A stretch of 32,306 nt of DNA, taken from contig JAFQMS010000034.1 of assembly GCA_017396145.1 (NCBI GenBank), forward strand, positions 1 through 32,306. The letters run 5' to 3'. The notes below the pieces were generated by a model that saw nothing but the letters and a program-made list of their open reading frames with translations, did not search any database and was not told the origin of the DNA. The stretch comes from Lachnospiraceae bacterium. Its GTDB lineage: Bacteria; Bacillota; Clostridia; Lachnospirales; Lachnospiraceae. Below, piece by piece: positions 2,404 through 31,523 of this stretch (position 1 is the stretch's first letter; every line of letters begins with the position of its first letter). The position numbers were made by a program, and so were the translations under genes.

Positions 2404-2607
2404 TTATTGGATAACTTTATATCCTTGTTCTTCAATTGTTTTAATTATAAGTTCTGTAGAAACCTCGTTATCTGAGATTATAGTAGCAGTACCCGTTTCA
2501 TGACTTACAATTGCTTCTTTAACACCTTCTAAATCTTCTAAGCATTTCTTTACACGTCCTTCACAGTGCATACACATCATACCTTCAACTTTAAGTGTTT
2601 TCTCCAT
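2404..2607 (-). CDS. copZ: Possible internally initiated CopZ-like copper chaperone (nested in copA frame)
   Basis: Inside the copA frame the codon for residue 767 is an ATG preceded, nine bases upstream, by GGAG (within AAGGAG). Initiation there would yield a free 67-residue HMA protein (MEKTLKVEGMMCMHC...), the normal size and sequence layout of CopZ. The preceding linker looks like read-through of a former intergenic region. What is seen is the site and frame; that the short product is made is inference. The alternative is that the domain exists only as the C-terminal part of CopA. Confidence 0.5.
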   Translation of the reverse strand: MEKTLKVEGMMCMHCEGRVKKCLEDLEGVKEAIVSHETGTATIISDNEVSTELIIKTIEEQGYKVIQ

Positions 2608-4905
2608 AGTTTTATTCTCCTTTTTATTAAAATTATTATTTTTGATTCTTTTATCTTTGGCACTACTTTTTATATTAATAAGATTTAATCGTAGTGCATT
2701 AGTTACTACACAAAAACTTGATAAACTCATAGCAGCAGCACCAAACATTGGATTAAGTTGCAGATTAAATATTGGTATCCATATTCCGGCTGCAAGTGGA
2801 ATACCAATGGTATTATATATAAATGCCCAGAAAAGATTTTCATGAATATTTTTTAATACAGCGCGGCTAAGGCGAATTGCGCAAGGCACATCACTTAGTG
2901 AACTTTTCATTAATACCACATCAGCAGCATCAATGGCAATATCAGTGCCAGCACCAATAGCGATTCCTATATCGGCACTTGTTAGTGCAGGAGCATCATT
3001 TATACCATCGCCAACCATTGCAGTTTTTCCTTTTTTCTTTAAATCTCTAATTACTTTTTCCTTGCCTGCAGGTAATACTCCGGCAATTACTTCGTCAACT
3101 CCTGTAAGTTCTTTAATAGCATTAGCAGTTTGTATGTTATCCCCAGTTAACATTACAACATAAAGCCCCATATTCTTTAATTCACTAATGGCTTCCCGGC
3201 TGTCTTCTTTAACAGTATCAGCTACTGCAATAATACCTTGCAATTCGTTATCCTTGGCAAAGAATAATACAGTTTTCCCCTTTTTAGCATAATTTTCTGC
3301 AATTTCTTTAATGTTATCAGACACTTTAATTTTGTTTTCTATAAATTTTAAATTGCCACCAATAATAGTTGAATTGTTAATTGTTGCCTGTAGACCATTA
3401 CCTGGAATTGCATTGTAATCTGTGCTGTCCAAAAGCAATAAGTTCTTTTCTTTAGCTTTATTAACAATTGCTTTTGCAAGGGGATGTTCGCTTTTTATTT
3501 CTAGAGAGTATGCAATAGATAAAAGTTCTTCTTCAGTAATATGGTCACATGGTGTAATATCAGTTACTTTTGGTTCACCGCATGTAATGGTTCCTGTTTT
3601 ATCTAAAGCAATAATCTGTGTTTTACCAGTGGCTTCTAAAGAAGAAGCTGTTTTAAAAAGAATACCATTCTTTGCACCAACACCACTGCCAACCATTATT
3701 GCAACAGGAGTAGCAAGTCCTAATGCACAAGGACAACTAATTACCAGAACTGAGATTGCTCTAGCAAGAGCAAAACCAAGGGATTGTCCACAAATCATCC
3801 ATATGGTAGCAGTGATTATTGCTATACAGATTACAATCGGTACAAATACTCCGGATACTTTATCAGCAGCTTTTGCTATTGGAGCTTTTGTTGCAGAGGC
3901 ATCACTTACCATCTTAATTATCTGAGAAAGAATAGTATCTTCGCTTGTTTTTGTTGCCTGACATTTTACATAACCATAACTATTAATTGTTGCAGCATAT
4001 ACATGATCACCTTTTTTCTTATCTACAGGAATACTTTCTCCTGTAAGAGCAGATTCATTAGCAGCACAATTGCCTTCGATAATAATTGCATCAGTGGCAA
4101 AACTTTCTCCCTGTTTTACAACAAAGATATCATCTTTTTTGATTTCGTCGGCAGGAATAATTATTTCTTCATTATTTCTTATAATAGTAGCAGTTTTAGG
4201 CTTCATTGCTATAAGACCTTTTAAAGCACTTGTTGTTTTACCTTTAGAACGGGCTTCTAGCATCTTGCCTACAGTGATTAACGCAAGAATCATTGCAGCT
4301 GATTCAAAATAGAATTCGTGAGCATAGTTTGCCACATCAGATAGGTTACCTTTAGTAACAGCAACTGTCATTGCAAATAGAATATATACACTGTATATAA
4401 ATGATGCACCGCTTCCCATAGCTACCAGTGTATCCATATTAGGTGCTTTGTTAATTACTGCTTTTACTCCACTAATAAAAAACTGCTGGTTAATAACCAT
4501 AACAATAATAGCAAGGAGCATCTGTGTAATTCCAAGTGCAATATAATTGTTGACAAACACTGCAGGGAGGGGAAGATTAAGCATAGAATGTCCCATAGAA
4601 AAATACATAAGGACAACTAAAAAGATTAAAGAAGACAATAAGCGTTTCTTTAATCTTGGAGTTTCGGTATCTGTAAAGGAGTCATCTTTTTTTGTGGTAG
4701 AGGTGTCAGATTGTAAACTGGCGTTGTAACCAGCATTTTCAACAGCTTCAATTATATCTTTTGATGACGCTGTTCCTTCAACAGCCATAGAATTAGTGAG
4801 AAGGTTAACAGAGCATGCATTTACACCTTCTAATTTTGATACTGCCTTTTCAACACGGGTAGAGCAGGCAGCACAACTCATACCAGTTACATTATAATGT
4901 TCCAT
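2404..4905 (-). CDS. copA: Cu(I)-translocating P1B-type ATPase with C-terminal chaperone-like HMA domain
   Basis: 833 residues. An N-terminal heavy-metal-associated domain carries GMSCAAC (Cys11, Cys14). Eight transmembrane helices are expected. Motifs in order: TGES actuator loop, CPC metal site (391-393), phosphorylation site DKTGT (D435), SEHPLA nucleotide-binding motif and GDGINDAP hinge. YN in helix 7 and MxxSS in helix 8 are the Cu(I)-specific P1B-1 signature, so the role is ATP-driven copper(I) export. Unusually, after a Lys/Asn-rich linker (about 738-766) there is a second full HMA domain with MCMHC (Cys778, Cys781), like a free CopZ chaperone. The ribosome-binding site at the 4905 ATG is weak and no better in-frame start exists before a TAG stop. 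The gene lies 64 bases downstream of the DtxR-type regulator on the same strand, so the two may be co-transcribed. Confidence 0.95.
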   Translation of the reverse strand: MEHYNVTGMSCAACSTRVEKAVSKLEGVNACSVNLLTNSMAVEGTASSKDIIEAVENAGYNASLQSDTSTTKKDDSFTDTETPRLKKRLLSSLIFLVVLMYFSMGHSMLNLPLPAVFVNNYIALGITQMLLAIIVMVINQQFFISGVKAVINKAPNMDTLVAMGSGASFIYSVYILFAMTVAVTKGNLSDVANYAHEFYFESAAMILALITVGKMLEARSKGKTTSALKGLIAMKPKTATIIRNNEEIIIPADEIKKDDIFVVKQGESFATDAIIIEGNCAANESALTGESIPVDKKKGDHVYAATINSYGYVKCQATKTSEDTILSQIIKMVSDASATKAPIAKAADKVSGVFVPIVICIAIITATIWMICGQSLGFALARAISVLVISCPCALGLATPVAIMVGSGVGAKNGILFKTASSLEATGKTQIIALDKTGTITCGEPKVTDITPCDHITEEELLSIAYSLEIKSEHPLAKAIVNKAKEKNLLLLDSTDYNAIPGNGLQATINNSTIIGGNLKFIENKIKVSDNIKEIAENYAKKGKTVLFFAKDNELQGIIAVADTVKEDSREAISELKNMGLYVVMLTGDNIQTANAIKELTGVDEVIAGVLPAGKEKVIRDLKKKGKTAMVGDGINDAPALTSADIGIAIGAGTDIAIDAADVVLMKSSLSDVPCAIRLSRAVLKNIHENLFWAFIYNTIGIPLAAGIWIPIFNLQLNPMFGAAAMSLSSFCVVTNALRLNLINIKSSAKDKRIKNNNFNKKENKTMEKTLKVEGMMCMHCEGRVKKCLEDLEGVKEAIVSHETGTATIISDNEVSTELIIKTIEEQGYKVIQ

Positions 4906-15551: not shown

Positions 15552-15617
15552 ATATATATAAAAACTACTAAAAAAGATAATTTTGCGGGTTTTCCGCTTT
15601 AATTTGGGAGGGTACAC

Positions 15618-18600
15618 ATGGATAGAAATTTGATAGTTGAGTTGGAATTTAATAAAACAATTAATTATGCTATGTGGCAAAACTATGTGCCATTTGTAAG
15701 AAATATTGTATTCAAGAATAATGGAACAACACCTTTAAACAATGTGGTGTTAAAGATTAGTTTTGAACCAGAGATTGCAAGTACATACGAACATACAGTG
15801 GATGTTATTAATTCTAACACTCCTGTGAGTGTTTCGCCGGTGAGTATTATGCTTTCACCAAACTATCTGGCCGGATTAAATGAGCGTACACCTGCAGTTA
15901 TGCATATTGATGCATATATAGGCGAAGATAACATATATCATAAAGATGAACAGATAGATGTGTTATCATATGATCAGTGGACTGGCTACAGCATAATGCC
16001 AGAGATATTATGTTCATTTGTAACACCAAATTATCAGGGACTTTCTGCCATTTTATCCACTGCTGGCAATTATCTTGCAAAGTGGAGTGGTTCAAGTGAT
16101 TTCACAGGTTATCTTACTAATAATCCTAATAACGTAAGATTACAGATGGCTGCAATTTTTACTGCTCTTAAAGAGTGGGGAATATCCTATTCTTTGCATG
16201 CAGCTAATTTTGAAGAGGTTGGTCAGAAAATTAGAATGGCAGATATAGTTTTAGAACAGCGCAGGGGAAATTGTCTGGACTTTTCTGTAACATATGCATC
16301 GGCCTTAGAGTCTGTAGGTCTAAATCCAATAATAATTATTACTAAAGGACACGCTTTTGTAGGATGTTGGCTTGACAATTTAACTTTTCCTGAGTGTGTA
16401 GAATATGATGCAAGTGCAATTACTAAGAGAATAGCTCAAGGAATCAACGAAATAGAACTTTGTGAATGTACAATGTTTAGAGCAGGTGTAGATTCTACAT
16501 TTGATGATGCTGCTTATGCAGGAGCGGGCAAATTAGCGGGTAATGATGAATTTGTTATGGCTATTGATGTTAAAAGATGTAGAACAAGCAAGGTATATCC
16601 TTTACCACAAAGAACAATTAAGGATGGAACCTATGTAATAGAAGCGCCTAGGGACACCACATATTCAACAGCCGCTCCATCTACTAATATCAATCAGTTA
16701 GTAATAGGTGTTGACGAGAATTCAACTAAACTTACTAAAGAGCAGTTATGGGAGCGAAAACTTCTTGATTTAGGCCTTAGGAATCCATTAGTTAATTTTA
16801 GACCTAACAAATCATCAGTTCAACTTATGGCGGCAAACCTTCCTGTATTAGAAGATGAGATTGCTAAAGGACATGATTTCAAGATTATGCCAATTCCTCA
16901 GGATTTTGATGCAACATTAAAGGATAGTAAGATTTATGATATAGAGAATAACACAAACTATATTAATGATATTGCTAAAAGTGAATTTGAAAACAAAAGG
17001 ATTAGAACTTTTGTTTCTGAAAAAGAACTAAATAATTCTATGAAACATTTGCAAAGACAGGCAAAACTAAGTTTAGAAGAGAATGGTAGCAATACATTGT
17101 ACCTTGCGCTAGGTTTTCTAAGATGGTATGAAAGTGATATAAGTGAAAAACCAAGATATGCTCCATTGGTACTTATTCCTGTGGATATTGTTAAAAAGAT
17201 TGTATCTAACACGTATTCTATTAGAATTCGTGATGATGAAGCACAGATGAATATTACTTTATTGGAACTTTTGAAACAGGATTTTGGAATAAGTCTTTCG
17301 GGTCTTGACCCACTTCCTACAGATGATAGTGGAATAGATATTTTACTGGTGTTTAATACCATTAGAAAAGCAGTAATGGCTAAGAATCGTTGGGATGTTG
17401 AAGAACTTGCTTTTGTAGGTATTTTCTCATTTAGTCAGTTCATTATGTGGAATGATATTCGTAACCGTAAGGAAGAGATTGCTGCCAATAAAGTTGTTAA
17501 GAGTTTGATTTCCGGTAAGATGGAATGGGAATCTGAGTTTAATGAAATTGCAGGAGATAATTTTGATATAAGCATAAAACCTAGTGATGTGGCTATTCCA
17601 ACAAGTGTGGATTCATCTCAAATGGCGGCTATATCTGCTGCGGCTCAAGGTGAAAGTTTTGTACTTTTTGGACCACCGGGAACAGGTAAATCACAAACTA
17701 TTACCAATATGATTGCAAATGCTTTGTATCAGGGTAAATCAGTTTTATTTGTTGCAGAAAAGATGGCAGCCCTTACGGTTGTTCAAAAACGTCTTGAAAA
17801 GATTGGTCTTGGGCCATTTTGCCTTGAATTGCATTCTAACAAGGCGCAGAAGAGAGTTGTACTAGGCCAACTTGCTAAGACATTAGAGGTTGGAAGAATT
17901 AAAGAACCTGAAAGTTACAGTGAAACAGCTCAAAAACTATATGAGACAAGAAACAAACTTAATGATATTATGCTTGCGATTCATAAGAATGGAAGATGTG
18001 ATAAGTCGCTTTATCAGATGATTTCAGATTATGAAGCTAATGTAGATAATAAAGATAAGATTCTCTTTGATGTTGAATTTGTTAAAAACCTTTCAGCAGG
18101 AGATTATAATAAACTAATAGAGGAAAGTGAACATTTAATTACAACATACAAGTCTTGTGAACATGTGACAGATATATTTAAAGCCGTAAAACTTAAAGAG
18201 TACACAATGTCTTTAAGAGATGAGATAAATAAGGCTGGAACTGCATTTGCAGGTAATGTTACTATGTTTATCAATGAGATTGATGCATTGTATAACAAAC
18301 TTGGAATAGACGGATACGCAACTGCTAGAATTCTTGAAAGTCTTTTGCTATTATGTAAGATTTGCAATGAATATGAGTTTATTCTTGATAGTATTGTTAG
18401 TGATGGTGGTTTTACAACTAAGAAAGACCAATTAAATCTATTTATACAAAAAGGTTTAGAATACTCAAGAATTAAATCCGAAATTGAGTCAGTATTTGTG
18501 CCGGGAGTGGAATCAGTAAATCCTTTCGAACTTAAAGCAAAGTGGAATGAGGCCAAAGGAAAATGGTTCTTAATGAAGATGTTTGCAACTAAGGATGTTG

Positions 18601-21410
18601 TAAATATGTTAGCTGCTTATGCTAAAAATGCTGGAACTATAACCAAAGACAATATGGATAAGTATATTGAACTTTTGGTTAGTTTAAAGAATACGCAACA
18701 GGAATTATCATGCACGGATGCATCTATTACAGGTATGTGTGGAGAAGTTTACGCAGGATTAAATACAGATTTCATTAAACTTAGTAAGATAGTGTATGGA
18801 AGTACAAAGGCATGGGAGCAAGTAGAGTATTTAAAGAAGAATATAGAAGGCTTTAACTTCAATTATAACGGATTTAAGGGTAATCAGGGATATATTAATG
18901 CATATGATAATTTTGTAAATGAGAAGAATGAATTAAAGAATAAGTATTCTCTCGATTTTGATGTATATAATCTTAATACCCAGATGCCACAGGCTATTCT
19001 ATCTGCTATCATAAAATGGCCAGAAAACATTGATTCCTTGAGAGAATACATTGGATATAGCAATGCTAAGTCAACGTTAGAACAGTTAGGTGGAAAAGCT
19101 ATAACAGATGCGCTTATTAATAAAGATGTTACTAAAGAGAACTTGATTAGTTCATTGGTATGTACAATAAACTATAATCTTGCAATTATTACTATTGAAG
19201 AAAGTGACATTTTAAGAGGTTTTACAGGTACCAACATAGAAGAATCTATAGCAAAATATAAAGATATTATTGAAGAGTTTGAAAAACTCACAATTAATGA
19301 ACTAGTAGCTAAACTTTCTGCTAACATACCATCAGGTAATATGGCGGTAGCCGGTAGTTCTGAACTTGGTATTTTACAAAAAGCCATTAAGAGTAATGGT
19401 AGAAATATGTCCATTAGAAAACTTTTTGACAATATCCCTGCGCTTCTTAGAAAAATGTGCCCATGTATGCTGATGAGTCCTATATCTGTAGCACAGTACA
19501 TAGATCCTTCTTTTGAAAAGTTTGACTTAGTAATATTTGATGAGGCGTCACAACTTCCAACAAGCGAGGCAGTGGGTGCTATTGCCAGAGGTAATAATGT
19601 AATTGTAGTAGGTGACCCAAATCAGCTTCCACCAACTAGTTTCTTCTCATCTTCTAAGGTGGATGATGACAATATGGATATAGAAGATATGGATAGTGTT
19701 CTTGATGATTGCCTTGCAATATCAATGCCTTCAAGACACCTGTTGTGGCATTATCGTTCAAGACATGAAAGTCTTATTGCATACAGTAATGCAAAATATT
19801 ATGACAATAAATTACATACATTCCCATCACCTAACGATATGGATTGTCAGGTGAAATGGGTTAATGTGGAAGGACATTATGATAAAGGTGCAAGCAGATG
19901 CAATAAATTTGAAGCACAGGCAATAGTTGATGAGATAGTAAAAAGGCTTAGTGATCCTGTTGAGAAAAATAATAGTATAGGTGTAGTAACCTTTAGTGTT
20001 GTTCAACAGCATTTAATTGAGGATATGTTAGAGGAAAAACTTAGTAAAGAACCACAACTTGCAGCAATTGCTTATGAAAGCGAAGAACCAATCTTTATTA
20101 AGAATCTTGAAAATGTACAGGGTGATGAAAGAGATGTAATATTATTCTCTATTGGTTATGGTCCTGATAAGGAAGGTAAGGTTTCAATGAACTTCGGACC
20201 ACTTAACAATGAGGGTGGTTGGAGAAGACTTAATGTTGCAATCTCAAGATCTCGTAAAGAGATGGTTGTATTTTCATGTATTAAACCAGAGCAAATAGAC
20301 CTTTCAAGAACAAGGTCAGAGGGTGTTGTTGGTCTTAAAGGGTTCCTTGAATTTGCTAAAAATGGTAAGAATTCGCTTATATACAGAGAAGATTTAGTTG
20401 ATAATAAGTGTGATGATGTGGTAGAAAACATTGCTGCAGAACTTAGAAAAGATGGCTATAAGGTTAATACATCTATAGGTAGTTCAAAATTTAAGGTGGA
20501 TTTAGGTATTGTAGACCCCGAAGATGATAACAAATATATACTGGGTATTATGTGTGATGGTATAAACTATGCAGGCTCTAAGACCGCAAGAGACAGAAAT
20601 GTTTTACAACCTTCTGTTTTAAAGGGACTTGGATGGGAGATTATGAATGTTTGGGTAATGGATTGGTTTGATAGCAATAGAAAGGTTAAAGAAAGCATTG
20701 TAACAAGAATCAATTCAATACTTGAAGAAAGAAAGAATCCAACGCCAGTTGAATCTGAAAAAGTGACAGAACCAGTGAAAGCACAGCAGACATCAATTCT
20801 TGATTCCTATGAAAGGGTAGAAATAGAAATTCCAAAAGACGAGAATCTTTTAGAATATAAGATATATACACCTAAAAGGTATTTGATGACTGAGAATTTC
20901 TATGAACAGGCTTCGAGTAATAATTCCAAGGAACTTGAACAAACCCTTGGGGATATTATAGAATTGGAAGCTCCTGTATGTACAGATATTATTAAAGCAA
21001 GATTTGCTCAAAAATATCGTATAACTAAAAGGACAGCCAAGTTTGAAGAAATGGCAGAAAAATTTATTTCTTCTCAAAAACAGTATCCATTCACTATTAA
21101 TGATGATACTAAGTTTTTATGGAATGTGGGACAAAAGGCTAATGAACTTAAGTATTACAGAGTATGTGAGCATGAAGAGATAAGAACGGCTAAACAAATC
21201 TGTATACAAGAACGTCTGGCAGGTTTGGTTGGGGTACTAAAAGTACAACTTGGTATGTCAAGAGAAGACCTTGCAAGACAGTCAGCTAATGTGTTTGGAT
21301 TTACAAGGCTTACTGCTACAGTTAACAGTGCATTTACAGATGCTATAGATTATGGAATTGCATTAGGTGTATTAGTAGAAAAGGATGGAAAGATTACTTT
21401 ATGCGAATAA
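15618..21410 (+). CDS. Giant multidomain protein: transglutaminase-like, DUF4011, SF1 helicase, Vsr-like nuclease fold, DUF3320-like (Hhe-like)
   Basis: 1930 residues. About 1-150 is beta-rich (Ig-like). About 170-270 is a transglutaminase-like cysteine-peptidase fold with C219 (GNCLDF) and H245 (GHAFVGCW). DUF4011 begins near 375 (KLLDLGLRNPLVNF). The SF1/Upf1-like helicase has Walker A GPPGTGKS (685-692), about 600 residues of helical insertion, Walker B DEASQ (1308-1312), GDPNQLPP (1332-1339), QGDERDV (1501-1507) and AISRSRK (1541-1547). About 1605-1690 matches the MTES_1575/Vsr-like nuclease fold (D1628, CDG 1646-1648, ARDR 1657-1660, LGW, DWF). A DUF3320-like C-terminus ends the protein. 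DUF4011-helicase-Vsr proteins are known as the Hhe anti-phage system, so a defence role is inferred; the protease-like N-terminus is extra. GGGAGGG lies five bases before the ATG. The stop overlaps the next gene by ten bases. Composition matches its neighbours. Confidence 0.9.
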   Translation: MDRNLIVELEFNKTINYAMWQNYVPFVRNIVFKNNGTTPLNNVVLKISFEPEIASTYEHTVDVINSNTPVSVSPVSIMLSPNYLAGLNERTPAVMHIDAYIGEDNIYHKDEQIDVLSYDQWTGYSIMPEILCSFVTPNYQGLSAILSTAGNYLAKWSGSSDFTGYLTNNPNNVRLQMAAIFTALKEWGISYSLHAANFEEVGQKIRMADIVLEQRRGNCLDFSVTYASALESVGLNPIIIITKGHAFVGCWLDNLTFPECVEYDASAITKRIAQGINEIELCECTMFRAGVDSTFDDAAYAGAGKLAGNDEFVMAIDVKRCRTSKVYPLPQRTIKDGTYVIEAPRDTTYSTAAPSTNINQLVIGVDENSTKLTKEQLWERKLLDLGLRNPLVNFRPNKSSVQLMAANLPVLEDEIAKGHDFKIMPIPQDFDATLKDSKIYDIENNTNYINDIAKSEFENKRIRTFVSEKELNNSMKHLQRQAKLSLEENGSNTLYLALGFLRWYESDISEKPRYAPLVLIPVDIVKKIVSNTYSIRIRDDEAQMNITLLELLKQDFGISLSGLDPLPTDDSGIDILLVFNTIRKAVMAKNRWDVEELAFVGIFSFSQFIMWNDIRNRKEEIAANKVVKSLISGKMEWESEFNEIAGDNFDISIKPSDVAIPTSVDSSQMAAISAAAQGESFVLFGPPGTGKSQTITNMIANALYQGKSVLFVAEKMAALTVVQKRLEKIGLGPFCLELHSNKAQKRVVLGQLAKTLEVGRIKEPESYSETAQKLYETRNKLNDIMLAIHKNGRCDKSLYQMISDYEANVDNKDKILFDVEFVKNLSAGDYNKLIEESEHLITTYKSCEHVTDIFKAVKLKEYTMSLRDEINKAGTAFAGNVTMFINEIDALYNKLGIDGYATARILESLLLLCKICNEYEFILDSIVSDGGFTTKKDQLNLFIQKGLEYSRIKSEIESVFVPGVESVNPFELKAKWNEAKGKWFLMKMFATKDVVNMLAAYAKNAGTITKDNMDKYIELLVSLKNTQQELSCTDASITGMCGEVYAGLNTDFIKLSKIVYGSTKAWEQVEYLKKNIEGFNFNYNGFKGNQGYINAYDNFVNEKNELKNKYSLDFDVYNLNTQMPQAILSAIIKWPENIDSLREYIGYSNAKSTLEQLGGKAITDALINKDVTKENLISSLVCTINYNLAIITIEESDILRGFTGTNIEESIAKYKDIIEEFEKLTINELVAKLSANIPSGNMAVAGSSELGILQKAIKSNGRNMSIRKLFDNIPALLRKMCPCMLMSPISVAQYIDPSFEKFDLVIFDEASQLPTSEAVGAIARGNNVIVVGDPNQLPPTSFFSSSKVDDDNMDIEDMDSVLDDCLAISMPSRHLLWHYRSRHESLIAYSNAKYYDNKLHTFPSPNDMDCQVKWVNVEGHYDKGASRCNKFEAQAIVDEIVKRLSDPVEKNNSIGVVTFSVVQQHLIEDMLEEKLSKEPQLAAIAYESEEPIFIKNLENVQGDERDVILFSIGYGPDKEGKVSMNFGPLNNEGGWRRLNVAISRSRKEMVVFSCIKPEQIDLSRTRSEGVVGLKGFLEFAKNGKNSLIYREDLVDNKCDDVVENIAAELRKDGYKVNTSIGSSKFKVDLGIVDPEDDNKYILGIMCDGINYAGSKTARDRNVLQPSVLKGLGWEIMNVWVMDWFDSNRKVKESIVTRINSILEERKNPTPVESEKVTEPVKAQQTSILDSYERVEIEIPKDENLLEYKIYTPKRYLMTENFYEQASSNNSKELEQTLGDIIELEAPVCTDIIKARFAQKYRITKRTAKFEEMAEKFISSQKQYPFTINDDTKFLWNVGQKANELKYYRVCEHEEIRTAKQICIQERLAGLVGVLKVQLGMSREDLARQSANVFGFTRLTATVNSAFTDAIDYGIALGVLVEKDGKITLCE

Positions 21411-22513
21411 TGACTGTATGTACAACATCATTTGGGTTTAATGGTATAACAGGGGTCATTATGAATTATTTTGAGAACATGGATGATAGCAACATTGCCA
21501 TGGATTTTGTTGTAATAAATGATGTTGATAAGGGGCTTAAGGATAGAATTAATAAAAAAAGTGAAACTCTTTTTAAACCTTCAAAAATATTTAAGATTCA
21601 GGGAAGAAATAAGAATCCCTTTGGCTATATCAAAAACCTTACAAGAATCTTGAAAGAAGGAGATTATGACATTATACATATTCATGGAAACAGTGCTACA
21701 ATGCTTACAGAGTTAATTGCAGCAAAGAAGGCAAAGGTTAAGGTTAGAATAGTACATTCTCACAATACCACATGCACTCATAAGATAATTCATAATTTGG
21801 CAAAGAGAAGTTTTCATAAATCCTATACTCATAGATTTGCTTGTGGAGAACTTGCGGGAAAATGGCTTTATGGAGATAGAGATTTTATTGTTATTAATAA
21901 TGGTGTTGATACCTTAAAATTTGAGTATAAAAAAGAAATCAGAGAGGCGGCTAGGGAAGAACTTGGGTTAAATAACAAAAAAGTAATAGGTCATATAGGT
22001 CATTTTTCTTATCAAAAGAATCATGAGTATGTATTAAAACTTTTTAGTAATATTTATAAAAGAGATTCTGATTACGAGCTGATACTGATAGGTGATGGAA
22101 AACTTAAAGAAGAAATGATAGATTATGCTAAGGAACTTGAGATTTCTTCCAATGTTAGATTTGTTGGGAGAACCCATGAGGTAGTGAAATATATGCATGC
22201 TTTTGATATGCTTATTTTACCTTCAAGATTTGAAGGACTTCCTTTGACAATTATCGAAGCCGTAAGTAATGCATTACCGTGTATTATTTCCGACAAGGTA
22301 TCTAAAGAAGCGATTATAGATGGTTTTGTTACAAGTATATCACTGGATAATATGGAAGAATGGGTGGAAAATATACTGGCATTACCAATTAATAAAAGAG
22401 AAGAGAATAAGGGGAAAAGCATTGCTCTTGTGGAAGAAAAAGGTTATGATATACATAAAAATGCAAAAGAATTGATTAACATGTATAAAAACTTCTTGGA
22501 AGAGATGGGATAG
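21401..22513 (+). CDS. GT4-family glycosyltransferase (EpsF-like)
   Basis: 370 residues with two Rossmann-like halves. The N-terminal half has a glycine-containing loop (FGFNGITGV) and IIHIHGN. The C-terminal half has GHFSYQKNHEYVLKLF, LILIGDGKLKEE and the EGLPLTIIEA Ex7E-type motif of retaining GT4 enzymes. It probably adds a sugar to a lipid-linked polysaccharide repeat unit at the inner face of the membrane; donor and acceptor cannot be read. Its ATG lies inside the last codons of the giant helicase gene (ten-base overlap), with GGAAAG eight bases upstream, implying translational coupling. A second in-frame ATG lies nine bases later. Confidence 0.88.
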   Translation: MRIMTVCTTSFGFNGITGVIMNYFENMDDSNIAMDFVVINDVDKGLKDRINKKSETLFKPSKIFKIQGRNKNPFGYIKNLTRILKEGDYDIIHIHGNSATMLTELIAAKKAKVKVRIVHSHNTTCTHKIIHNLAKRSFHKSYTHRFACGELAGKWLYGDRDFIVINNGVDTLKFEYKKEIREAAREELGLNNKKVIGHIGHFSYQKNHEYVLKLFSNIYKRDSDYELILIGDGKLKEEMIDYAKELEISSNVRFVGRTHEVVKYMHAFDMLILPSRFEGLPLTIIEAVSNALPCIISDKVSKEAIIDGFVTSISLDNMEEWVENILALPINKREENKGKSIALVEEKGYDIHKNAKELINMYKNFLEEMG

Positions 22514-29259: not shown

Positions 29260-29332
29260 GCATCTATAGCTCAGTGGATAGAGCAGAAGTTTCCGGAACT
29301 TCGTGTCGGGGGTTCGAATCCCTTTAGATGCA
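29260..29332 (+). tRNA. tRNA-Arg (anticodon CCG)
   Basis: A 73-base cloverleaf with a 7-bp acceptor stem (29260-29266 with 29325-29331), D stem GCTC/GAGC, and a 5-bp anticodon stem with loop TTCCGGA placing CCG at 29293-29295. The T arm has GTTCGAATC. The discriminator is A at 29332, and CCA is not encoded. Two G-U pairs lie in the T stem. A TATACT at 29239-29244 may be the promoter -10. It reads CGG arginine codons, which look rarer in the AT-rich genes here than in the GC-richer gene just downstream. Confidence 0.95.
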
Positions 29333-29534: not shown

Positions 29535-31280
29535 ATGAAATCAAAAAAAACGATTTGTCTGATACTATCTGCTATGATGGTATTAAGTGTTTTAGCCGGT
29601 TGTCAAGACGAACCGCAGGTCAGTACTGACCCACCCGAGAGCAGTACGCCCATTCAAACACAGGAACCAAATTCTCAAGACACTGCAGCATCGCATACTC
29701 CCGAACTCAATACTGAAGAACATTCTGAAACCTACGAGAAGATCCACAGTATTCTGAAAAATTCGGAAATTTACTATTTGGACGATACGGAAGCACTAGC
29801 TCCATACTATGAAATGGCAGCACAGCGTAAGGAAGCCATTCTGGATTCTCCCACGGAAATTGTAAAGTCTGACGAATTCATTCCCGGTCAGACCTATACG
29901 GGCACGGCGTACTATGTTTCTCCCAATGGCAACGATGCTAATGATGGTCTTTCGCCCGAAACAGCATGGCAGAACATTTACAAGGTCAATGATGCAGACC
30001 TGCTGGTAGGGGATGCGGTGTTTTTTGAGCGCGGCGGCGTGTACCGGCTGTTGGGCGACCGCTTGAATCTGGCGGATGGCGTGACCTACTCTGCTTATGG
30101 AGAAGGCGCAAAGCCGGTCATTACCCTTTCGCAGGAAAACTCCGCCCGGGCGGAGTGCTGGGAACTGTCTCACGAGGGTGCGAACGGCGAGAAGATCTGG
30201 AAATTCTATCAGGATCTTGGCGAAGTAGGCGGCGTCATTTTTGATGATGAAACCTATGCGGCAAGGGTTTATGAATTGCCGACCGCAGAGGGCTGGATGG
30301 CGCTGGATGTTCTGCCCCTCGATCCTGCAAACGGAATATGTAATGAAATAGACCCCATGAAAATTGAGGAAGTTGTCACGACGGGAACGTATCCCACCGT
30401 GGAAGAAGCTCTGACAGAAGATATGACCTTTGTCAGCCGGGTAGATCTGACAGAGGTTCGCTTTCCATCTAATTTTGGAGAATGGAGAGTCTATGGGGGC
30501 TTATATCTGCGCTGTGACAGTGGTAATCCCGGAGAACTTTATTCCAGTATAGAGATTATCTCCCGCCGGGAAACACCCGATTATGGTATGGACGTTATTT
30601 TGATTGATGCCACAGCGAAGGGATTTGTTCTTGATAATCTCTCGATGAAATACTTTGGGTCACCTGTTGTTGGATCGTTCACAGGATGCGGTGGTGAAAT
30701 GATACAGAATTGTACTTTTGAGTGGGGTGGTCCCTGCCTGCTTGATGTACAGACCCCCGATGCCTTTAATGGAGACTACTTTGTAGCAAGCGACGGCCTC
30801 TATAATATTGCCAACAACACCACGATCCGAAACAATTATTTTAGAGAAGTGGGAAACAGCGCCACATTTGAAAGCTCGGAGTCTGTCCCCGACAGTATGG
30901 GCACCTACACCGTTGAGGGAAATCTGATTGAAAATTGTGCACAGGGTATTCGTACATATCTTTTTGAGGAAGAAGGTGTCTTTGATGCGATCATACTCAG
31001 GGATAACATTATTCTGAACTCGGGGAGCAGCATGAATAATGGTTGCTATGAAGAACCGGTTGCCATTGACCTTGGCGGTATAGCTTATCAGTTTTATAAG
31101 GAAATCGAGATCTCAGAAAACATCTTGATTGGAAGCACTGCCGCAATGATTCGTCTTTCTCGTTCAGATCGCTTCCAGTATAACTTCCACGACAATGTAA
31201 TTGCGCAAGACAAGGACGGTCTTATCTTGACAGTATGCAATGACGAAGTTGAATGGTACTGGATGAAGGATGCAAAGTGA
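29535..31280 (+). CDS. Secreted lipoprotein with predicted right-handed beta-helix
   Basis: 581 residues. A signal peptide with lipobox LAGC (lipidated Cys23) is followed by a Ser/Thr/Pro/Glu-rich linker (about 25-65) and a region YYVSPNGNDANDGLSPETAW, the usual opening of parallel beta-helix proteins of the pectate-lyase/DUF1565 type. The C-terminal part has repeated turns such as IQNCTFEWGG, IRNNYFREVG, VEGNLIENC and LRDNIILNSG, one per helix coil. It is probably attached to the outer membrane face and acts on or binds a polysaccharide; catalytic residues are not identifiable. AGGAGG lies eight bases before the ATG. The gene is clearly GC-richer than its neighbours, with CTG, CGC and GCC codons rare elsewhere here, which suggests horizontal acquisition next to tRNA-Arg. 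Confidence 0.88.
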   Translation: MKSKKTICLILSAMMVLSVLAGCQDEPQVSTDPPESSTPIQTQEPNSQDTAASHTPELNTEEHSETYEKIHSILKNSEIYYLDDTEALAPYYEMAAQRKEAILDSPTEIVKSDEFIPGQTYTGTAYYVSPNGNDANDGLSPETAWQNIYKVNDADLLVGDAVFFERGGVYRLLGDRLNLADGVTYSAYGEGAKPVITLSQENSARAECWELSHEGANGEKIWKFYQDLGEVGGVIFDDETYAARVYELPTAEGWMALDVLPLDPANGICNEIDPMKIEEVVTTGTYPTVEEALTEDMTFVSRVDLTEVRFPSNFGEWRVYGGLYLRCDSGNPGELYSSIEIISRRETPDYGMDVILIDATAKGFVLDNLSMKYFGSPVVGSFTGCGGEMIQNCTFEWGGPCLLDVQTPDAFNGDYFVASDGLYNIANNTTIRNNYFREVGNSATFESSESVPDSMGTYTVEGNLIENCAQGIRTYLFEEEGVFDAIILRDNIILNSGSSMNNGCYEEPVAIDLGGIAYQFYKEIEISENILIGSTAAMIRLSRSDRFQYNFHDNVIAQDKDGLILTVCNDEVEWYWMKDAK

Positions 31281-31382
31281 GAATGTGCTTGATAAGAGCA
31301 TCTTATTGGACAAATTATTCCGCTGAACCTAATGCGCATCCCCTGGATCTATAATTAAAAAGTTCATAGGCAAAAATGCAAA

Positions 31383-31423
31383 CAGGCTCTACGGTGACCG
31401 TTCTTTGGTTACCATAGAGCCTG
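31383..31423. repeat. 17-bp inverted repeat (hairpin 1)
   Basis: Arms 31383-31399 and 31407-31423 with a 7-base loop; 15 Watson-Crick pairs, one G-T and one mismatch. There is no T-run after it, so it is not a standard terminator. Confidence 0.75.
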
Positions 31424-31442
31424 CTATCGTTAAAAGATATGG

Positions 31443-31465
31443 AAAAAACCTTGCAATGGTTTTTT
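31443..31465 (+). terminator. A/T-tract hairpin terminator (hairpin 2)
   Basis: An 8-bp stem AAAAAACC/GGTTTTTT with a 7-base loop. The right arm itself supplies the U-tract, and the stem is weak. It may terminate the lipoprotein transcript about 160 bases after its stop. Confidence 0.5.
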
Positions 31466-31474
31466 ATAAAAAGA

Positions 31475-31523
31475 AACCGGACACCGGCTTTGATACGCAT
31501 TGTATCAAAACCGGTGTCCGGTT
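31475..31523. repeat. 22-bp near-perfect inverted repeat (hairpin 3)
   Basis: Arms 31475-31496 and 31502-31523 with a 5-base loop and a single mismatch. The outer half is GC-rich (CCGGACACCGG), the inner half AT-rich. It is the strongest hairpin in the window and lacks an immediate T-run. It could be an mRNA 3'-end stabiliser, a mobile-element end or a protein-binding site. Confidence 0.8.

What the first reader, a model, noticed from the sequence alone, without database searches (positions are those of the whole stretch)
15618..21410. 1930-residue transglutaminase/DUF4011/SF1-helicase/Vsr-like fusion
One polypeptide carries a Cys-His protease-like domain (C219, H245) ahead of the DUF4011-helicase-nuclease-DUF3320 core known from Hhe-type anti-phage proteins. 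A papain/transglutaminase-like module fused to a Upf1-type helicase suggests a sensor-effector protein with two possible activities, one on protein and one on nucleic acid. The core domains are established families; the combined role is inference.
Basis: partly seen in the sequence, partly recalled or inferred. Interest (0 to 1): 0.7.

Follow-up and report, generated by a model that had tools for sequence, protein, structure and literature searches.

The report
ProA-type anti-phage protein, optional transglutaminase domain
A giant bacterial protein predicted to defend against viruses turns out to belong to an already named family, and comparing its relatives shows that its protease-like front part is an optional add-on that has been lost or disabled several times while the helicase and DNA-cutting parts stay intact.

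Summary
The ORF is real (15618-21410 +, 1930 aa): beta-type N-domain, transglutaminase-like domain (C219/H245/D264), DUF4011, split SF1 helicase, Vsr-like nuclease, DUF3320-type tail. It is not a new kind: it passes NCBIfam NF058533 'anti-phage protein ProA' over the full profile (1987.8 bits, cut-off 1500), fails the curated Hhe model (806 against 2000), and giant transglutaminase/SF1-helicase/Vsr/wHTH proteins were described in 2013, with a HEPN domain not seen here. It is patchy (over cut-off in 5 of 61 relatives and 11 of 391 class genomes), so not housekeeping. New here: helicase motifs and a nuclease Asp are kept in 48 of 48 aligned proteins, but the transglutaminase is optional: absent from 14 core proteins, catalytically dead in 4 (one clade), at least 5 changes on the tree; two same-genus cores 73% identical differ in having it. 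A rare form keeps N-domain, transglutaminase and DUF3320 without helicase or nuclease.

The parts
15606..15612 (+). ribosome-binding-site-like GGGAGGG, 5 bases before the ATG
   Evidence: read directly; function inferred
15618..21410 (+). proA-type gene, 1930 aa
   Evidence: NCBIfam NF058533 1987.8 bits over cut-off 1500; PADLOC PDC-S37 1204.5 bits
15618..16067 (+). N-terminal domain Nt1 (residues 1-150), probably a beta-sandwich
   Evidence: its profile hits 33 of 33 transglutaminase-bearing core relatives; only weak Ig/CBM/arrestin-like matches; no HEPN among Pfam matches at E up to 1
16068..16727 (+). transglutaminase-like domain (residues 151-370)
   Evidence: hhalign Prob 75.8, E 2.3e-5 against 22 genuine Transglut_core domains, reversed control 0.2; Pfam sub-threshold
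16272..16274 (+). codon of C219, putative nucleophile
   Evidence: full C-H-D in 30 of 34 transglutaminase-bearing core proteins incl. the window
16350..16352 (+). codon of H245
   Evidence: in the same 30 of 34; L046, without the Cys, also has a His in this column
16407..16409 (+). codon of D264
   Evidence: D in 39 of 39 aligned rows, one of them an ordinary transglutaminase-type neighbour
16758..17273 (+). DUF4011 (residues 381-552)
   Evidence: Pfam PF13195 E 3.3e-49
17535..17897 (+). helicase, first part; Walker A GPPGTGKS at residues 685-692 (17670-17693)
   Evidence: AAA_19/AAA_30; Walker A invariant in 48 of 48
17898..19304 (+). variable insert between helicase parts (residues 761-1229)
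   Evidence: least conserved module, about 20% identity
19305..20297 (+). helicase, second part; DEAS 1308-1311, GD..Q.PP, QGDERD, motif VI Arg
   Evidence: AAA_11, AAA_12; D1308-S1311, G1332/D1333, Q1501-D1506, R1537, R1544 each in 48 of 48
20424..20711 (+). MTES_1575 Vsr-like nuclease domain (residues 1603-1698), D1628
   Evidence: Pfam PF18741 E 2e-24; D1628 in 48 of 48. D1647 is not invariant (49 of 55 in the wider, unclean set)
20865..21407 (+). C-terminal region, DUF3320-type (residues 1750-1930)
   Evidence: family profile E 6e-53 (with one wrong seed row; rebuilt without printing this row); Pfam DUF3320 E 0.21 here, above cut-off in relatives
21401..22513 (+). neighbouring GT4 glycosyltransferase overlapping the proA stop by 10 bases (or starting at 21410): one transcript likely, functional link not shown

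Best explanation
This is a ProA-family, single-gene anti-phage protein. Shown: domain content, family membership, patchy distribution, invariant helicase motifs and nuclease Asp, and an optional transglutaminase. Inferred: the DUF4011/SF1 motor engages foreign or abnormal nucleic acid, the C-terminal winged-helix-type region helps bind it, and the Vsr-like nuclease cuts it. The N-terminal beta domain plus Cys-His-Asp transglutaminase-like domain is an add-on that tunes when the core fires, by sensing or processing a protein partner or trigger, rather than being the main effector. That explains why it can be dropped or catalytically killed while motor and nuclease are kept.
For: NF058533 over cut-off and PDC-S37. 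Patchy presence, 5 of 61 and 11 of 391 (window included in both), 0 of 14 well-known control genomes over cut-off. Invariant Walker A, DEAS, motif V/VI and nuclease D1628, 48 of 48. Transglutaminase states among 56 core proteins: 30 active (window included), 4 dead, 14 absent, 8 undetermined; at least 5 changes forced by starred branches, one-clade tree of 13 module-free rows rejected p 1.5e-5. L041 against L039, same genus, 73.4% identity over 1540 residues of core, residues 1-378 missing in L041; L017 (both), L015 (N-domain only), L014 (neither) within one supported clade. No transglutaminase coding found in the 14 loci without it (best E 0.24; positive controls 1.6e-99 or better). Some relatives sit beside defence-type genes.
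Against: No phage-protection experiment was seen; the paper behind the ProA name was not found (none; some searches showed capped lists). The window's neighbours are enolase, DegV and capsule-type glycosyltransferases. The neighbour comparison does not establish enrichment for defence genes. Where present, the transglutaminase is as conserved as the nuclease (41.9 against 37.7% mean identity within the active set) and its triad is kept in 30 of 34, so it is not a mere relic. Loss or gain is not settled for every event.
Confidence: 0.6

Rival explanations
1. Two-effector weapon: the nuclease attacks DNA and the transglutaminase-like domain is an independent protein-cleaving or crosslinking effector, a further line of defence (the 2013 proposal and the first reader's view).
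For: Triad kept in 30 of 34 transglutaminase-bearing core proteins, also in 6 of 6 Bacteroides-type and alphaproteobacterial relatives checked, two of them near-copies; the module is under constraint; a form exists with N-domain, transglutaminase and DUF3320 but no helicase or nuclease (L062, L063); PMC3710099 passages.
Against: Absent in 14 core proteins and dead in a clade of 4 that keeps motor and nuclease; at least 5 changes on the tree.
Confidence: 0.22
2. The transglutaminase fold serves mainly as a binding or sensing domain, with catalysis secondary or absent.
For: Four members of one family, f91, keep the module (dead against active profiles Prob 100) but have P/P/S/S in the Cys column and K/G/H/T in the His column.
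Against: Most members, including this one, keep the whole triad; the dead four alone no longer match genuine transglutaminase domains (Prob 0.3).
Confidence: 0.12
3. A DNA or RNA repair or maintenance factor, not defence.
For: The window context is housekeeping and polysaccharide genes; no partner gene is shared by more than 8 of 28 neighbourhoods compared.
Against: Patchy across close relatives; curated anti-phage family; defence-type neighbours in some relatives.
Confidence: 0.06

Closest known systems
NCBIfam NF058533 'anti-phage protein ProA'
   Same: Full-length match, profile 1-1903 of 1903, 1987.8 bits over the 1500 cut-off; includes the N-terminal and transglutaminase region.
   Different: Nothing that separates this protein from the family was found. 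The experiments behind the name were not located.
PADLOC PDC-S37 (candidate defence protein)
   Same: Residues 377-1924 match profile 12-1542 of 1550, 1204.5 bits.
   Different: The match begins at residue 377, so the profile does not cover the N-terminal and transglutaminase region.
Hhe (NF042953; PADLOC Hhe)
   Same: Helicase second part and nuclease are homologous (806 bits NCBIfam; 578.6 bits PADLOC).
   Different: Far below the curated cut-off of 2000.
HEPN-transglutaminase-SF1 helicase-Vsr-wHTH giant proteins of PMC3710099 (MTES_1575, Brachybacterium)
   Same: Transglutaminase-like peptidase, SF1 helicase, MTES_1575 Vsr nuclease, DUF3320/wHTH (passages).
   Different: No HEPN among Pfam matches at E up to 1 in the window protein or in the 37 N-terminal regions scanned.
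Transglut_core PF01841 / DUF553 PF04473
   Same: Cys-His-Asp arrangement; profile match.
   Different: Divergent; sub-threshold for the single sequence.

Membership tests
ProA, NF058533 | score at or above the curated cut-off over the full profile | tested here: met
   1987.8 against 1500 bits, profile 1-1903 of 1903
ProA, NF058533 | protects cells from phage | not testable with these tools
   no experiment available; source paper not found (the last three gave capped lists)
PDC-S37 | match to the DUF4011-helicase-nuclease-C-terminal profile | tested here: met
   1204.5 bits, profile 12-1542 of 1550
Hhe, NF042953 | score at or above the curated cut-off | tested here: not met
   806.2 against 2000 bits
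HEPN giant proteins (2013) | N-terminal HEPN domain | tested here: not met
   no HEPN match at E up to 1; a very diverged HEPN could be missed by sequence
Transglutaminase-like superfamily | Cys-His-Asp triad in order, in a homologous profile | tested here: met
   hhalign E 2.3e-5 and reversed control; C219, H245, D264
Transglutaminase-like superfamily | fold by structure | not testable with these tools
   structure prediction switched off
SF1 (Upf1-like) helicase | Walker A, DExx, QGDE..D, motif VI Arg | tested here: met
   48 of 48 aligned proteins; PDB sequence hits SMUBP-2, Sen1, Upf1/Nam7
MTES_1575 Vsr-like nuclease | Pfam PF18741 over cut-off, conserved Asp | tested here: met
   85.9 against 38.2 bits; D1628 48 of 48; catalytic activity not tested
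DUF3320 | Pfam cut-off | tested here: inconclusive
   12 against 25 bits here; 5 of 5 relatives scanned above cut-off

The most novel reading that the evidence does not exclude
The N-domain plus transglutaminase is a swappable trigger cassette that works together with the C-terminal DUF3320 region. It has been dropped or converted to a pseudo-enzyme several times within ProA, and in one family (L062, L063) it runs on its own, with a zinc-ribbon-like DUF4428 front and DUF3320 tail but no helicase or nuclease. That would make it a separate, undescribed signalling or defence protein.
Probability: 0.3. Interest if true: 0.55.

Novelty: new member of a known kind. Interest (0 to 1): 0.35.

Why it matters
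The gene itself is a further member of a named family. What is useful is a set of natural experiments that make a 2013 guess testable: similar cores with and without the transglutaminase (L039 and L041 at 73% identity; L017, L015 and L014), a catalytically dead clade (L044, L045, L046, L049), and a nuclease-free form (L062, L063). Comparing them in one laboratory host would show directly whether the peptidase-like domain is effector, trigger or non-catalytic sensor.

Tried and rejected

At E 1e-10 the neighbours matched 159 PADLOC models and the controls 16. But only the first 25 of the 159 were shown, 16 of those are GajB (UvrD-helicase) models, no model matched more than 3 neighbours, and a single UvrD-type neighbour hit 10 GajB models even at E 1e-20. 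Controls also include MzaA (3 members) and RT-model hits. The controls do not match the genome-contig loci by genome. I do not claim enrichment. Of 10 large neighbours looked at one by one, 3 hit at E 1e-20: UvrD-type (L067), DinG-type (L012), type I restriction subunit (L070); among neighbours scanned with Pfam, DNA polymerase III alpha (L068) and GGDEF/EAL (L079) are ordinary.

No conserved partner gene: of 28 neighbourhoods (27 loci and the window), the most widely shared family, in 8, holds the window's ABC ATPase; further families in 2 to 5 were not all annotated, and many lie within one genus.

Empty-site test: DegV, GT4 and enolase neighbours were sought in 21 genomes; the same-genus genome has no match at the thresholds used, so insertion at this site could not be tested.

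The match MT836269 'Bacteriophage sp.' is an unverified scaffold; beside the proA-type gene it has an RT matching the same PADLOC model as the RT in Bacteroides NZ_OY725931, and an ORF of about the size of that record's next gene. That 'plasmid' itself carries rpsA and ftsK. So neither is taken as mobile-element evidence.

A bug of mine: a 2046-codon antisense ORF of L016 entered the first module profiles. It was found by direct check and the profiles were rebuilt. One search's column counts also include unrelated ORFs and are not used except for D1647.

Tree: quick method, SH-aLRT only. A second build left out L031, L030, L061 and L042 (long or distant rows) and gave the same count of changes. 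Rows dropped before the count: loci that repeat another locus, L127 (judged a near-copy of L126 from the transglutaminase segment, one difference shown), and proteins without the helicase second part and nuclease.

Literature: 10 searches; one was swamped by an unrelated abbreviation; some searches listed 30 of 39, 5 of 741 and 12 of 178 papers.

Full report
Observation. The ORF 15618-21410 (+) encodes 1930 residues without a stop behind a GGGAGGG motif. Pfam finds DUF4011, the two parts of an SF1 helicase and the MTES_1575 Vsr-like nuclease with strong scores; Transglut_core (E 0.05) and DUF3320 (E 0.21) are below their cut-offs. A PDB sequence search gives 12 sequences, all SF1 helicases of the SMUBP-2, Sen1, Upf1/Nam7 type or labelled 5'-3' RNA helicase-like.

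Transglutaminase domain. The weak single-sequence hit was tested with relatives. Of 37 aligned N-terminal regions, 16 hit Transglut_core and 16 hit DUF553 at E up to 1 (best 1e-4 and 4e-4). A profile of 37 family domains against 22 genuine PF01841 domains from related genomes (3 of 25 fetched were left out as cut by contig ends) gave probability 75.8, E 2.3e-5, with C219 and H245 over the known Cys and His. The reversed control gave probability 0.2, and two other modules of the protein gave 0.2 and 0.7. The catalytically dead four taken alone gave 0.3 against the genuine domains, but 100 against the active members. D264 is Asp in 39 of 39 rows. The best PDB sequence match of the N-terminal profile is a chain named transglutaminase-like domain-containing protein, E 0.031, too weak to count alone. 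The first 150 residues show only weak beta-sandwich-type matches.

Family. NCBIfam NF058533 'anti-phage protein ProA' is met over its whole length (1987.8 against 1500 bits); Hhe is not (806.2 against 2000). PADLOC PDC-S37 matches residues 377-1924. PMC3710099 (passages seen) already describes giant proteins with HEPN, transglutaminase-like peptidase, SF1 helicase, Vsr nuclease and wHTH overlapping DUF3320, and proposes that the transglutaminase is a further line of defence by protein cleavage. No HEPN is seen here. No paper of the library holds ProA, DUF4011 and anti-phage together; the source of the name was not among the papers listed, which are capped lists. PMC13092281 was only searched for ProA, helicase, Hhe and Vsr, with no occurrence. 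In P. aeruginosa a large DUF4011 gene is a core flank of a defence hotspot, present in every isolate (PMC10250203 passages), so DUF4011 alone does not mean accessory defence.

Distribution. Over the cut-off in 5 of 61 relatives and 11 of 391 genomes of the class, the window genome counted in both, and in 0 of 14 well-known control genomes. One copy over the cut-off in the window genome, which is 58.5% complete. A pattern scan of genome contigs with this protein, which finds close relatives only, gave 22 relatives from 26 candidate stretches; 19 of the 22 titles say MAG, and all name Bacillota, mostly Oscillospiraceae, Ruminococcus or Clostridia. Residues 1-375 match 78 plasmid records, 62 over at least 80% of the query, mainly Proteobacteria by genus name.

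Core against module. In 48 aligned proteins (window included) the Walker A, DEAS, GD..Q.PP, QGDERD and motif VI residues and nuclease D1628 are invariant. Among 56 core proteins (a few of them distant), 30 carry the transglutaminase with C-H-D (window included), 4 carry it with the Cys lost (and the His in 3 of 4), 14 lack it with the 5' end seen, and 8 are undetermined. tblastn with 10 transglutaminase queries finds nothing in the 14 loci without it (best E 0.24), against 1.6e-99 or better in four positive controls. On a helicase-nuclease tree presence or absence needs at least 5 changes, all forced by starred branches, and a tree with 13 module-free proteins as one clade is rejected (p 1.5e-5). 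The dead four are one clade (support 100), all from one family, f91.

Natural variants. L041 and L039 come from one genus and share 73.4% identity over 1540 residues, but L041 begins just before DUF4011. L017 has N-domain and transglutaminase, L015 has only the N-domain, L014 neither; the three lie in one supported clade. L062 and L063 (881 and 902 aa) have DUF4428, then N-domain, transglutaminase with intact triad, and DUF3320, and no helicase or nuclease. This form was found in 2 of 391 class genomes; its neighbours are ordinary metabolic genes and an AAA ATPase (L062), and an AAA/DUF4143 gene and an N6-type DNA methylase (L063).

Context. Window neighbours are enolase and DegV upstream and two GT4 glycosyltransferases, PssD, PssE and an RNase_T-type exonuclease downstream. 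The stop of proA overlaps the next start by 10 bases, or abuts it if the second ATG is used, so co-transcription is likely, function unclear. GC content of the gene is like that of the window. In relatives, defence-type neighbours occur in some loci: a retron-type RT (RT_III-A model, E 1.8e-104) in a Bacteroides record; in Rhizobium phaseoli a ThiF-type gene that matches BilD (E 2.3e-174) beside a Mov34/MPN gene; a multiubiquitin and a ThiF gene in R. beringeri, the latter only weakly matching E1-E2 models; and a type I restriction subunit in L070. Two other plasmid loci, Thioclava and Paracoccus, show none that I recognise. The counted neighbour comparison was not decisive.

Mechanism. Shown: conserved motor motifs and nuclease Asp, and the optional peptidase-like module. 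Inferred: motor and nuclease act on invading nucleic acid; the N-terminal module tunes activation through a protein. Where present the module is conserved (41.9% mean identity within the active set, against 37.7% for the nuclease and 62.9% for the helicase second part), so it does something useful to its owners. A protein-directed second effector is not excluded.

Verdict. Observation confirmed; a new member of a known family; interest lies in the optional transglutaminase and its natural variants.

Noticed in passing
L062:5081-7726 (-) and L063:4040-6748 (+): 881 and 902 aa proteins with DUF4428, Nt1, transglutaminase with intact triad and DUF3320 but no helicase or nuclease; 2 of 391 class genomes. 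By eye the stretch before Nt1 resembles a second Nt1; not tested.
   Followed up: partly
L044, L045, L046, L049: ProA-type proteins of one family with the transglutaminase Cys (and in 3 of 4 the His) lost, motor and nuclease Asp intact.
   Followed up: yes
L016:739-6879 (-): A 2046-codon open frame antisense to the proA-type gene; no blastp match better than E 1.1 to the sense protein or the window protein; probably a composition effect. Long antisense frames also occur in L011 (1636) and L046 (1361).
   Followed up: partly
L023:10004-10282 (+): A 92-aa fragment matching the N-domain about 1.6 kb upstream of the full proA-type gene, perhaps a remnant of a second copy.
   Followed up: no
L126:20861-21991 (-), L127:6134-7270 (-): Retron-type reverse transcriptase convergent with the proA-type gene in two Bacteroides-type records.
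   Followed up: partly
window 29260-29332 and 29535-31280: tRNA-Arg followed by a 581-aa gene in a stretch of higher GC (0.465 in 30001-31500 against about 0.33 elsewhere); its only PDB sequence hits are 4, three of them lacto-N-biosidases (best E 8e-8).
   Followed up: partly
window 2404-4905 (-): Copper-exporting P-type ATPase type (PDB 3j09, E 3e-152), ordinary.
   Followed up: yes
NZ_OY725931.1 and MT836269.1: Records labelled plasmid and bacteriophage that look like Bacteroides chromosome pieces.
   Followed up: partly
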